A model generated the notes under the pieces. It searched no databases. It worked only from the letters and a program-made list of their open reading frames with translations, and was not told the DNA's origin. A stretch of DNA of 64,000 nt, taken from Rhizophagus irregularis. Lineage: Eukaryota; Glomeromycota; Glomeromycetes; Glomerales; Glomeraceae. The DNA is taken from contig NC_089430.1 of assembly GCF_026210795.1 (NCBI RefSeq), positions 3,968,001 through 4,032,000 of the forward strand, in the 5' to 3' direction. Positions 45,429-64,000 of the stretch are shown in pieces; the stretch's first letter is position 1; each line of letters begins with the position of its first letter. The translations under genes were made by a program, and so were the position numbers.

Positions 45429-45860
45429 ATCGTAACTCCGCCAATATTAATCGTAGAGAGATGATCTTACCGCCATTCGATTCGTCTTGATGAGACGGTT
45501 CTAATGGTATAAAATACGTCGAAATCCAATCACTAGATTAATTTCCGAAATTAAAAAAATATTAATGGTTTTTGTGTAATAACTCTGTCAATATTGATCC
45601 TAGAAAGACGATCTTACTACCATTCGATTCGTCTTGATAAGACGAATCTAATGGTGTAAGATACATCGAAATCTAATCACTAGATCAAATTCCGAAATTA
45701 AAAAATATTAAATGGTTTTTAAGTAGTAACTCCGTCAATATTAATCACAGAGAGATGTGCTTACCACCATTCGATTCGTCTCGATGAGGCGATTCCAACG
45801 AGCTATAAATCGTCTTTTTACAATCACTAGGTACCGAGAAATCTAGCAAAATGTTAAATG
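45429..45860. repeat. 147-bp tandem repeat, three units
   Basis: Units start with TAACTCCGYCAATATTRATC and contain TTCGATTCGTCTYGATRAGR. Spacing between equivalent positions is exactly 147 bp twice. The third unit diverges at its end. It belongs to the interior of the Tigger-like element. Confidence 0.75.
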
Positions 45861-59471: not shown

Positions 59472-59813
59472 CTAAATAAAGAAATTATTAGAAAAAAATA
59501 ACAAAAAACAAAAAAAAAATAACTAAAGAATAAAAAAAAGTCAAATATATTATCAATAAAAGCTATTTGTATAATACATACATTCATACCTTTAGTTAGA
59601 TGGATTGGTAATTATGATAGATAGGTTGGCCGCTACCCTTAAATGAACTTATTTTTATTTTGACGTGAAAATTGATTAAAAATATATATATATTTTTTTT
59701 GATCTACATATCACCTAGTACAAGATCTTTGCGTAGCTTGTCAATCTTATATTACACAAAATAACAATAAAGCATTTATGTTATAAAATTGTAATGAACC
59801 AAATCCGCCCATA

Positions 59814-59951
59814 TGATAAGTTTTGTCAGGGTTTGCTTTTTTCAAAGTTTCACCAACTTTTTAACAAGACTTTCATATAGTTTTGGCAAAGTTTTGCTAT
59901 TTCAGCATTTCACCAACTTGCCAAAACCCCTAGTTTCTTTAGCAACCTTAC
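59814..59951. repeat. Decayed relative of the 244-bp hAT-like MITE
   Basis: CAAAGTTTCACCAACTTTTT and on, then TATAGTTTTGGCAAAGTTTT and CTTGCCAAAACCCCTAG, ending TTTAGCAACCTTA, follow the order of the element at 62175-62418 from its middle to its right end. The left end is missing. Confidence 0.55.
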
Positions 59952-60329: not shown

Positions 60330-60670
60330 ATGATTTGGTCAAATCGAATCAATTCAGATTTGATTCGTAATTTGATTCAATTCGATTCAAAAATTTTGAT
60401 TTGCAAATCGAATTCGAATTTCAAATCCAGATTTGAGCTTCAAATCCAAATTAAAAATATAAGATTTGATTTGATTTCAAATCAAATTTAAATCAGCCTA
60501 AACTAATTTGATCAAATCCAATCCAAATCAAATCCAAATCAAATCCAAATTAAATCCAAATCAAATCCAAATCAAATCCAAATCAAATCCAAATCGATTT
60601 GATTTGACTGAATCAAATAAATTTGACTTCAAATGATCAGATTTGGTCAGATGACTCAGATCAAATCACA
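60330..60670. repeat. CAAAT/ATTTG satellite with 11-bp AAATCCAAATC tandem core
   Basis: About seven direct copies of AAATCCAAATC lie at 60525-60600. They are flanked on the left by the same words in both orientations (GATTTGATTTGATT, AATTCGATTC, CAAATCGAATT), so the block can fold back on itself. It lies about 180 bp upstream of the hAT pseudogene. Confidence 0.7.
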
Positions 60671-60849: not shown

Positions 60850-62174
60850 ATGGATTTAGAGGATATGAATATTGATGAAGACATTGAAGTTGATAATGAT
60901 GCGTCTAATAAATCAATAATTTCGGAAGAAAGAGAAGGTGTTAGTAAAGCAAGTGACGTATGGAAGTATTTTACGAAGGATGTAAGCTATAAACAAAATA
61001 AAAAGGCGAAGTGTAATTTATGTGGAGTTACTTATATATGTACTGGAGGCAGTACATCGAATTTGAATAAACATATAAAAAACAAACATTCTGGCTCTGA
61101 AAAATTACAAGAAATGTCTATTAAAGATATTCTTAAGGCTGTGCCAAAGGTAAATATATAGAATTATAATTTATTTAAGTAATTGTTATTAAGTATTAAC
61201 AAATCTATATTATTTATTAGTGGAGATACAATAATAATGAAATGTTAAAGTGTCTTATTAAGTGGATCATTATTAATCAGCACTCATTTACAGTAGTTAA
61301 AGAATCAGCTTTTGCAAATCTTATATATACACTCCAACCCGATGCTAGACTAATCTCAGCTGATACTGTCAAAAAAAGAATTATGGATTTATATGAAAAT
61401 AATGTAAACAAAGTTAAAGAATCTTTTAAGAATATTAGAGAAAAGATCTCTTTTACCATTGATATTTGGACGTCTCCCTCTTCAAAATTATTTTTATCAT
61501 TAACTGCTCATTATATTGATAATGATTAGAAATTGAGAAATGTACTGGTTGATTTTATATAAATCTTTGTTAATTTTTTTTTTTTATTAATTTTTTTGCT
61601 TTAACCTTCAATTTAAATATTTAATTCATTTAATTTTGATTAATTTAAGGTAAACATACGGGAGAGAATATTAAAAATACATTTATGACTGGAATAAGTA
61701 AACTATCATTACAAAATAAGGTAAATTTCGGTTTGTTTTATTAAAATTATATTGTTGTAATTTATTAATTTAATAATATTATTTACAGATAATGGGAATT
61801 ACGACTGACAATGCAGCCAATAATCTAACATTTATTGATGCATTAGCAAAAAATAATAGTTTTTTTCAAAAGGAAAACCATTTTAGGTGTTTTGCTCACG
61901 TCATTAATTTATGTGTTCAAGATATTTTAAAAGAATTAGATGATAGATTTTTAAGTCAGGTAAGATAATTGTATTTATTTATCAATAAAATTGTATGATT
62001 TTATTAAACAAATATTTTATTTCATAATATATAGCTTCGAACACTTTTAGGTAAAATCCACTATTCTCCACAACGTCAAGAAAAATTGAGTTCCAACTGT
62101 AAACTACATGAAATCATTAATTTAAAAGTTGTTTTAAACGTGTCAACTCGTTGGAATTCTACATTTGATATCAC
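60850..62174 (+). pseudogene. Second hAT transposase gene, 5' part, with in-frame stop
   Basis: Five exon pieces: 60850-61149, 61221-~61556, 61650-61720, 61789-61959, 62035-62174. It starts MDLEDMNIDEDIEVD. The BED finger is SDVWKYFTKD...CNLCGVTYICTGG...NLNKHIKNKH. Then come REKISFTIDIWTSPSSKLFL, then YIDND followed by TAG at 61527-61529 where this family normally has Trp, and the donor of that exon is also lost. The catalytic region continues GKHTGENIKN, then MGITTDNAANNLTFIDAL, then CFAHVINLCVQDIL and NVSTRWNSTFDI. There a MITE splits the gene, and the C-terminal half (dimerisation domain) is absent. It is distinct in sequence from the hAT at 46693. Confidence 0.82.
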
Positions 62175-62418
62175 TAAGGTTGCTTGTCTAAACCTCTTCA
62201 AAATCTTACGATTAGTTTCGTCAAAATTTTACTATAGATTTATTATAGTTTCAGCAGAGTTTCAGCAGTTTCGGCATTTATAATAAGTTTCGGCAGTTTC
62301 GCCTTTCTCCAAAGTTTCACCAGTTTTTTAATATAACTTTAATATAGTTTCAGCAGAATTTCGCTTTTTGGCGAAACGCCATCTTGCCTAAACCCCTAGG
62401 TTTCGGCAAGCAACCTTA
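62175..62418. mobile_element. hAT-like MITE, copy 2, inside the hAT pseudogene
   Basis: 244 bp with perfect 12-bp inverted ends TAAGGTTGCTTG / CAAGCAACCTTA and an exact 8-bp duplication GATATCAC (62167-62174, 62419-62426). The insertion point is the TRWNSTFDI codon block of the transposase. It is nearly identical to 5128-5374 and more intact, so it is probably the younger copy. Confidence 0.88.
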
Positions 62419-62426
62419 GATATCAC

Positions 62427-62710
62427 TGGTCAAAATAGTCCATTTCGTCCAAATTTCAAATTGACGAATATTGGACGAAAGTTGGTCTAATTTTGGCTGA
62501 TCATTACCAAAAAAATCGTCAAAATTAAAATGCACGATTTGCACAGTTCGCCTGCCACTTGGCAATTACAATTCGGCAAAAATTCATTAAAAAATCGGAA
62601 ATAACTATTCGTCAACTTTTACTAGACATTCGTCCAAATTTCAAATTGCCGAATGTTGGACAAAATTGAGTCTAATTTTGTCTAATTATTAACGATTTTT
62701 ATGTATTTAG
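62427..62710. repeat. Direct repeat of about 75 bp, 185 bp apart
   Basis: CGTCCAAATTTCAAATTGAC at 62446 recurs as CGTCCAAATTTCAAATTGCC at 62631. Each copy is followed by GAAT(A/G)TTGGAC and a GTCTAATTTTG block. CGTC/GACG words in each unit are partly palindromic. It replaces the expected continuation of the hAT gene, so it marks a second, unclassified insertion or a rearrangement. Confidence 0.55.
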
Positions 62711-62827
62711 CTTATTTTTAATTTTGTAATAGCAATCAATTAATTATATTTTACTATTTCGCTTTATTAAAAATTACATATTAAAAAGTATTATATTAAA
62801 TTTCTAATATCTACAGTATCTGTCTAT

Positions 62828-62990
62828 TTACACCTACCATCTACCATCCACCATTTACCATTTACTATCGTCAACCATTGTCAACCATTATTAACTATCG
62901 TCCACATCCATTGTCCACTACCCATCATTCACCATCCATCGTTCACCATCATCCACCATCATCCACCATTATCTACTCATCCAAAATTAT
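62828..62990 (+). repeat. CCACCAT microsatellite-like tract
   Basis: Irregular runs of CCATCCACCAT, CCATCATCCA and CATTCACCATCC words. Translation of one frame gives a His/Pro/Ser-rich string with no meaning beyond the repeat. Confidence 0.65.
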
Positions 62991-62999
62991 CTACAACTC

Positions 63000-64000
63000 A
63001 CTCAGCTATCTGACAAAAGTCCGAAAGAGAAACCTAATAAAAAAAATAAAGAAATGGTTAGTAAACCGATTCTTTAATAAAAAAAAATTTAAGTTTCAAA
63101 ATATTTTGCAACTTACCCAACCAAAAATCTGAAGTGGAAACTTACCCATATATCCAAAGCCCAACCAAAAGTCAAAACCTACAAAATAGAAAAAAAATTA
63201 AAATAAAATTTAAAAAAAATCCTTTTTAAAATAAGTTTTGAAGTTTCACTTCAAAACTTACCCATATATCCAAAGCCCAAGAACTGAAAGTTGAAACCTA
63301 CAAAATAGAAAAATAATCAAAAATAAAATTAAAAAATATTTTTTTTTAAATTAAGTTTCAAAGTTTCTTCGAAACATACCCACATATCCAAAGCCCAAGA
63401 ACCGAAAGTCGAAACCTACAAAAAAGAAAAAAGAAACAATTAAAAAATATTTTTTTTTAAAAGTTTCGATTCTTTCATTCCGATCAAAATTTACATATAA
63501 TATATTCAACGTCCAATAACCAAAATCCTAAACCTACAAAATAAAAGAAAAAAAAATTAAAAAAATAATTTTATTTAAAAAAAGTTTTGAAGTTTTTACT
63601 CCGAAACTCACCCGTATATTCAACACCCAAGAACCGAAGGCTAAACCTACAAAATAGAAGAAAAAAAAATTTTAAAAAATATTTTTTAAAAAAAAGTTTT
63701 GAAGTTTTACTTCAAAACCTACCTATATATCCAACGTCTAAGAACTGAAAGAAACCTACAAAATAGAAAAAAGATACAATTAAAAAAAAATTTTGTTTAA
63801 AAAGTATAAAGATTCGTACTTACAAATCTTGGGTATTCTGTTCTTTGGAATCCCACCCGAGACACCTGAGACCTAAAAAAAAAATAGAAAAAGAACGGTT
63901 AGAAACTGTTCATAATATTAAAAATAAAAAATAAAAAATTAAGATTTATAGTTACTTACGAATCTTGATTTTTCATTGTTCTTCGGAACTCGAAAGCCTA
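63000..64000 (-). repeat. Tandem array of about 118-bp units resembling intron plus micro-exon
   Basis: CCTACAAAATAG-type words recur at 63178, 63297, 63415, 63533, 63646, 63755 and 63872, spacings 109-119 bp. On the minus strand each unit shows a T-rich tract, TTCTATTTTGTAG, a short conserved block, then GTAAGT or a similar donor. The blocks are 63297-63262 and 63415-63380 (36 nt each) and 63178-63146 (33 nt). In phase 0 these read VSTFSSWALDIW, VSTFGSWALDMW and VLTFGWALDIW. The other units carry stops or a 35-nt block. Two outer units at the right edge (ending AAGATTT|GTAAGT and AAGATTC|GTAAGT) have a different block. The array continues past the window. Confidence 0.7.

What the first reader, a model, noticed from the sequence alone, without database searches (positions are those of the whole stretch)
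63000..64000. Tandem array whose units look like repeated micro-exons on the minus strand
Seven or more units of about 118 bp each carry a pyrimidine-rich AG acceptor, a 33-36 nt conserved core and a GT donor. Selection or drift history shows in the pattern: the core and both splice-like borders are better conserved than the A/T linker between them. Three cores are multiples of three and read the same peptide theme (V-x-T-F-x-x-W-A-L-D-x-W), while others have stops. This could be the decaying 3' end of a gene built by tandem exon duplication, coding a repeat peptide, whose 5' end is beyond the window, or a minisatellite that happens to mimic splice sites.
Basis: partly seen in the sequence, partly recalled or inferred. 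Interest (0 to 1): 0.72.

Follow-up and report, generated by a model that had tools for sequence, protein, structure and literature searches.

The report
Tandem tiny exons in a eukaryotic gene
The edge of this window holds a run of very short, repeated exon-like blocks with believable splice signals, most likely the tail end of a gene that grew by copying one exon-plus-intron unit, but nothing in the sequence shows that it still encodes a working protein.

Summary
The array is real. On the minus strand, nine blocks of 32-49 nt (63997 to 63002) alternate with eight GT-AG stretches of 68-112 nt. These resemble 11 introns that I placed in two ordinary genes of the window in length, base composition and consensus match of donors; their pyrimidine tracts are stronger. 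Seven of nine blocks pass a strict micro-exon rule that is met only three times elsewhere on both strands. It is not simply one accident copied many times: two exon families without detectable relation (U0/U1, U2-U7) each end in a donor, and both border introns carry a CTAAC motif that inner ones lack. Against this, a weight model from the 11 introns ranks four of nine array donors below every reference donor and scores some plus-strand sites as high. The coding reading is not supported: no frame is open through all blocks, an open chain with at most one skip is expected about 30% of the time, and 27 core substitutions show no codon-position bias. Best reading: the 3' end of a gene grown by tandem exon duplication, now drifting or non-coding. 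RNA evidence is missing.

The parts
63960..63997 (-). U0, exon-like block of 38 nt (start assumed at the TAG at the window edge); same family as U1
   Evidence: similarity to U1, 0 of 1000 shuffles as high
63873..63959 (-). I0, 87 nt GT-AG intron-like stretch with CTAAC 30 nt before its end
63824..63872 (-). U1, exon-like block of 49 nt, no detectable relation to the U2-U7 core
63756..63823 (-). I1, 68 nt intron-like stretch similar to the inner introns
63723..63755 (-). U2, 33 nt core
63647..63722 (-). I2, 76 nt intron-like stretch with a predicted 5' hairpin
63612..63646 (-). U3, 35 nt core, 1 nt shorter than U5 and U6 in the alignment
63534..63611 (-). I3, 78 nt intron-like stretch
63495..63533 (-). 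U4, 39 nt core with weak donor GTAAAT
63416..63494 (-). I4, 79 nt intron-like stretch; its best fold is not the 5' hairpin
63380..63415 (-). U5, 36 nt core (VSTFGSWALDMW in frame 0)
63298..63379 (-). I5, 82 nt intron-like stretch
63262..63297 (-). U6, 36 nt core (VSTFSSWALDIW in frame 0)
63179..63261 (-). I6, 83 nt intron-like stretch
63232..63260 (-). 13-bp perfect inverted repeat in I6 that includes the donor's +2 to +6 bases; similar predicted hairpins in I2, I3 and I5
63146..63178 (-). U7, 33 nt core; a second GTAAGT donor lies 29 nt further on at 63116
63034..63145 (-). I7, 112 nt intron-like stretch; CTAAC 28 nt before its end; 3' part similar to that of I0
63002..63033 (-). U8, last exon-like block; each frame meets a stop in it or within 4 nt after it; no acceptor with 9 or more pyrimidines of 13 in the next 1.2 kb, so probably terminal

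Best explanation
This is the 3' portion of a spliced eukaryotic gene, read on the minus strand and entering the window from beyond 64000, in which one exon-plus-intron unit of about 118 bp was tandemly duplicated, presumably by unequal exchange. Each unit gives a micro-exon of 33-39 nt bounded by a U-rich AG acceptor and a GT donor. A different exon family (U0, U1) lies upstream and a probable terminal exon (U8) downstream. Shown: the repeat, the signals, their resemblance to the genome's own introns, and two exon families with separate donors. Inferred: transcription, splicing, the duplication mechanism. I think the transcript no longer encodes a conserved peptide; a non-coding or decaying transcript with variable exon skipping is the likely output.
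For: Intron-like stretches are 68-112 nt against 66-113 nt for 11 introns placed in NAA15 and PRPS of this window; pooled exon/intron GC is 0.40/0.18 against 0.37/0.22; donors match CAG|GTAAGT (recalled consensus) at 5-7 of 9 positions against 4-8 in the reference, while 8.1% of all GT sites reach 6. All 8 acceptors have 11-12 pyrimidines of 13; 336 of 6106 AG sites reach 10. Tract plus CTAAC occurs at 6 of 6106 AG sites, three of them in the array (two in one tract), at U1 and U8. The strict micro-exon rule gives 11 hits on the minus strand, 8 in the array, and 0 on the plus strand. U0-U1 are similar, U1-U5 not detectably; the 3' ends of I0 and I7 are similar to each other and not to I6. Random 118-nt units pass the rule 93 times of 20000; of units U2-U6, 4 of 5 pass on the minus strand and 0 of 5 on the plus strand.
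Against: No RNA data. Units are copies, so the signals are not independent. A weight model from the 11 introns gives reference donors 3.1-10.0 bits when left out one at a time; array donors U0, U1, U4 and U8 (0.3, 0.3, -0.0, -2.3) fall below all of them, and on the plus strand of the same region the best donors reach 8.3 and the best acceptors 4.9, as high as most array sites. Inner introns lack CTAAC; TTAAT-like motifs were seen in five of six, none in I2. The exon is not better conserved than the intron hairpin. No match in two collections, which hold viral and prokaryote DNA and so say little.
Confidence: 0.55

Rival explanations
1. A minisatellite that mimics splice sites: one ancestral unit happened to contain donor and acceptor look-alikes and was amplified; the locus is not spliced.
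For: Units are copies; no codon-position bias; substitutions pile up at CpG positions as in unconstrained repeats; the small weight model does not separate array donors from background, and plus-strand sites of the region score as high.
Against: Only 93 of 20000 random units pass the micro-exon rule. The U0/U1 family ends in its own GTAAGT donor and border introns carry a different, CTAAC-bearing 3' end, which one amplified accident does not explain.
Confidence: 0.28
2. A living micro-exon protein gene in which exon skipping varies the peptide, with U4 or U3 normally skipped.
For: With U4 (weak donor) skipped, U0-U8 are open in one frame; five of six U2-U7 cores are multiples of three. Traced by hand on the peptides, the path that skips U3 instead stays open to a stop in U8.
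Against: Chance gives an open frame for the U4-skipping path about 20% of the time and for any path with at most one skip about 30%. Substitutions fall 9/8/10 on codon positions; in frame offset 2 only 3 of 27 are synonymous against a null mean of 8.0. The length of U3 breaks the frame.
Confidence: 0.12
3. Introner-like intron multiplication: the repeated hairpin intron is the mobile part.
For: I2-I6 are alike; I2 and I6 fold better than all but 2 and 1 of 200 shuffles; I1 resembles the inner introns although it follows an unrelated block.
Against: Exons are duplicated together with introns in tandem, whereas introner-like elements are described as landing in seemingly random exons (PMC8469720, passages). 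Hairpin covariation is no better than shuffles. No convincing copy elsewhere in the window (best E 0.39 for the core model and 1 for the unit model).
Confidence: 0.03

Closest known systems
[quoted passage not shown]
   Same: Tandem arrays of near-equal exons and introns within one gene, for which unequal and ectopic recombination is proposed.
   Different: Those exons are exactly 90 bp, over 98% preceded by phase-2 introns, in genes described as having intact frames; here 33-39 nt, length broken in U3, coding not shown.
Schistosoma micro-exon genes (MEGs; review PMC8293314, passages)
   Same: Short exons of 36 bp or less that can be skipped without a frame change.
   Different: MEG exons are described as mainly symmetric and coding for exposed proteins; no intact frame is seen here and the 5' end is outside the window. 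Whether MEG exons are tandem copies was not looked at.
Aphid bicycle genes (PMC9168663, passages)
   Same: Many unusually small internal exons.
   Different: Bicycle internal exons are almost all phase 2 and divergent in sequence; here the blocks are recognisable copies without a fixed phase.
SP7-like effectors of arbuscular mycorrhizal fungi (PMC11333574, abstract and passages)
   Same: Imperfect repeat units in a fungal gene.
   Different: That paper describes a Y[KR]Rx[AP]x[AP] motif and a conserved intron before the first repeat; the motif is not in the peptides. That this window is fungal is itself untested.
Fungal introner-like elements (PMC8469720, passages)
   Same: Alike introns with inverted-repeat structure.
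   Different: Those are described in unrelated exons; here exon and intron are duplicated together.

Membership tests
Tandem exon duplication within a gene | Exon and flanking intron repeated head to tail | tested here: met
   (as sequence; that the blocks are exons is inferred)
Tandem exon duplication within a gene | Splice signals that fit the genome's own introns | tested here: inconclusive
   Lengths, GC, tract and consensus matches fit; the small weight model puts four of nine donors below all 11 reference donors
Tandem exon duplication within a gene | Blocks are spliced together in RNA | not testable with these tools
   no RNA data
Micro-exon gene (MEG-like, bicycle-like) | Symmetric or same-phase exons that keep one reading frame | tested here: not met
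   U0 38, U1 49 and U3 35 nt; no frame open through all blocks
Micro-exon gene (MEG-like, bicycle-like) | 5' end of the gene with a start codon and signal peptide | not testable with these tools
   the 5' end lies outside the window; feature recalled
SP7-like effector | Y[KR]Rx[AP]x[AP] motif at repeat ends | tested here: not met
   read by eye in the three-frame peptides, visible part only; motif from PMC11333574
Introner-like element | Copies of the intron in unrelated exons | tested here: inconclusive
   none convincing outside the array in this window (best E 0.39), but I1 follows a block unrelated to the core; the genome is not held

The most novel reading that the evidence does not exclude
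A micro-exon gene of a kind described in schistosomes and aphids, but in a different eukaryote (perhaps a fungus), where exon and hairpin-bearing intron are amplified together and the hairpin over the donor tunes which micro-exons are kept, so that one locus yields many short peptide variants.
Probability: 0.1. Interest if true: 0.7.

Novelty: new member of a known kind. Interest (0 to 1): 0.35.

Why it matters
If transcripts confirm it, the locus shows exon-intron units behaving like a minisatellite, which gives a direct view of how arrays of very small exons arise and decay, and adds a case to the few families named here. If it is not spliced, it is a useful warning about splice-like minisatellites in AT-rich genomes.

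Tried and rejected
Own-genome search was not possible (no genome held). One scan each of viral contigs and genome contigs with an exact acceptor-plus-core pattern found nothing; these are viral and prokaryote collections. No Rfam match at the gathering score and no tRNA in the window. Selection on a coding frame was tested in three frames on U2-U7 and not found (U0, U1 and U8 were left out of that count because they do not align, and gap columns were skipped). The hairpin as a conserved RNA structure: 91.4% of cells pair against at most 62.1% when slid, but 32 of 500 shuffles pair as well and 158 of 500 reach the covariation score (I4 was included although its alignment does not fit the stem). 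Nine pieces were folded; I2 and I6 stand out (2 and 1 of 200 shuffles as good), the other seven do not clearly (10 to 160 of 200). SP7-like effector was considered and rejected on its motif; a tandem-repeat surface-protein paper (PMC8786786, passages) describes genes with one or two introns, not repeated exons.

Literature: 'rhizophagus irregularis' with 'microexons' gave 0 papers. Listings that I read gave no matching case, but they are capped: 20 of 408, 15 of 46, 10 of 1,039, 12 of 107. So I do not claim that such an array is absent from print.

Full report
What is there. The last kilobase of the window holds a tandem repeat of about 118 bp (TRF 63200-63803, 5.3 copies, 71% matches, 12% indels; spacings 118, 118, 114 and 111). 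Read on the minus strand it resolves into nine short blocks, U0 to U8, of 38, 49, 33, 35, 39, 36, 36, 33 and 32 nt, separated by eight stretches of 87, 68, 76, 78, 79, 82, 83 and 112 nt that begin GT and end AG. The start of U0 rests on a TAG at the very edge of the window and is assumed.

The host. The window is AT-rich DNA with intron-bearing genes: a NatA auxiliary subunit (NAA15), a ribose-phosphate pyrophosphokinase (PRPS) and a threonine aldolase-like protein, among others, a reverse transcriptase (RVT_1) and a BED zinc-finger piece. I suspect a fungus, perhaps of the arbuscular mycorrhizal group, but that is a recalled impression and was not tested. No genome is held.

Yardstick. I placed 11 introns by eye where reading frames of NAA15 (nine) and PRPS (two) resume, helped by recalled conserved stretches of these proteins (frames). 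Eight NAA15 joins were translated and each continues an open frame; one further intron of that gene was left unplaced; the ninth NAA15 intron and the first PRPS intron were located, and their joins and the second PRPS join were not translated by script. The 11 are 66-113 nt long. Pooled GC is 0.18 in array introns and 0.40 in blocks, against 0.22 and 0.37 in reference introns and nine reference exons. Pyrimidines in the 13 bases before the acceptor triplet number 11-12 in the eight array acceptors and 4-11 in the reference. Matches to the recalled consensus CAG|GTAAGT are 5-7 of 9 in the array and 4-8 in the reference, whereas 8.1% of all GT sites in the window reach 6.

A result that goes the other way. 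A weight model trained on these 11 introns gives reference donors 3.1-10.0 bits (left out one at a time) and array donors -2.3 to 8.0; U0, U1, U4 and U8 lie below every reference donor. Array acceptors score 4.2-7.9 against -3.7 to 7.4 for the reference. On the plus strand of the same region the three best donors score 8.3, 7.7 and 7.7 and the best acceptors 4.9 and 4.5. With 11 training sites this model separates poorly, since reference acceptors themselves lie anywhere in the background, but it does not support the array donors as the consensus count does.

Chance. A strict rule (at least 10 of 13 pyrimidines, [CT]AG, then GT[AG][ATG]GT 24-60 nt on) finds 11 hits, all on the minus strand, 8 of them in the array (U1, a second AG inside U1, U2, U3, U5, U6, U7 and U8) and three elsewhere. 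Five hundred dinucleotide shuffles of the array region gave a mean of 0.11 and a maximum of 2. Because units are copies, the better null is a single random unit: 93 of 20000 random 118-nt units from the rest of the window pass, while of U2-U6 four of five pass on the minus strand and none on the plus strand. U4 fails the rule; U0 could not be tested.

Evidence that it is not one copied accident. A pyrimidine tract together with CTAAC upstream occurs at 6 of 6106 AG sites; three of the six are in the array, two of these in the same tract before U1 and one before U8. The 3' ends of the border introns I0 and I7 are similar to each other (0 of 1000 shuffles as high) and not to I6 (674 and 783 of 1000). 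U0 and U1 are similar to each other (0 of 1000) and not detectably to the core (U1-U5 211 of 1000, U0-U5 82 of 1000); U8 is weakly similar to the core (13 of 1000). I1 is similar to I5 (0 of 1000) (all). So two exon families, each with its own donor, and two intron types lie in one array. This is what duplication inside a gene would leave, and it is the main reason that I prefer that reading to a splice-mimicking minisatellite. Two caveats: the break between intron types need not lie at a splice site, and these comparisons were chosen after seeing the sequence.

Conservation. In U2-U6, substitution-only identity is 0.93 for the last 12 nt of the acceptor, 0.78 for the exon, 0.75 for the donor, 0.79 for the hairpin segment and 0.70 for the remaining linker; corrected for composition these are 0.88, 0.68, 0.62, 0.70 and 0.38; gap fractions are 0, 0.07, 0, 0.11 and 0.14. 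I6 holds a perfect 13-bp inverted repeat that covers the donor's +2 to +6 bases. I2 and I6 fold better than nearly all shuffles (2 and 1 of 200 as good), the other seven pieces folded do not clearly, and covariation is not above shuffles. A role in tuning donor use is possible and untested.

Coding. No frame is open through all nine blocks. With U4 skipped, one frame is open from U0 through the 32 nt of U8; 32 of 384 combinations of internal blocks and frames are open. Traced by hand on the same peptides, skipping U3 instead leaves a frame that runs to a stop in U8. Given which frames are open in each block, chance gives an open frame for the U4-skipping path about 20% of the time and for any path with at most one skip about 30%. 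The 27 differences of U2-U7 from their consensus fall 9, 8 and 10 on the codon positions, with no significant excess of synonymous change in any frame (P 0.10, 0.21 and 0.999). Twelve of 27 lie at the six CpG positions of 36 (binomial P 0.0007; 10 of 25 and P 0.005 if one shared change is counted once), which points to drift with CpG decay.

The 3' side. No acceptor with nine or more pyrimidines of 13 lies within 1.2 kb beyond U8, so U8 is probably terminal. An AATAAA lies at 62768, but six occur in that 1.2 kb, so it means little.

Verdict. The splice-unit reading is favoured and the protein reading is not supported. The closest known kinds that I looked at are tandem exon arrays in Tetrahymena LRR genes, schistosome micro-exon genes and aphid bicycle genes (passages). 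The defining feature of the coding micro-exon families, exons that keep one frame, is not met here.

Noticed in passing
62167-62427: A MITE-like insertion with terminal inverted repeats (AAGGTTGCTTG...CAAGCAACCTT) and a direct repeat GATATCACT on both sides; by eye it interrupts a stretch that continues the hAT-like frame to its left.
   Followed up: partly
60850-62170: BED zinc finger (PF02892) followed by pieces that look by eye like a hAT transposase with several short introns; the second piece had no Pfam match and its frame ends at a TAG at 61527, so the element may be decayed.
   Followed up: partly
59810-59950: A second stretch that by eye resembles the MITE-like insertion at 62176-62418.
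   Followed up: no
62800-63000: A short degenerate minisatellite just beyond U8 (unit CCATCATCCA on the plus strand).
   Followed up: no
45433-45792: A 147-bp tandem repeat, 2.4 copies, 84% matches.
   Followed up: no
60513-60595: An 11-bp CAAATCAAATC array, 7.5 copies.
   Followed up: no
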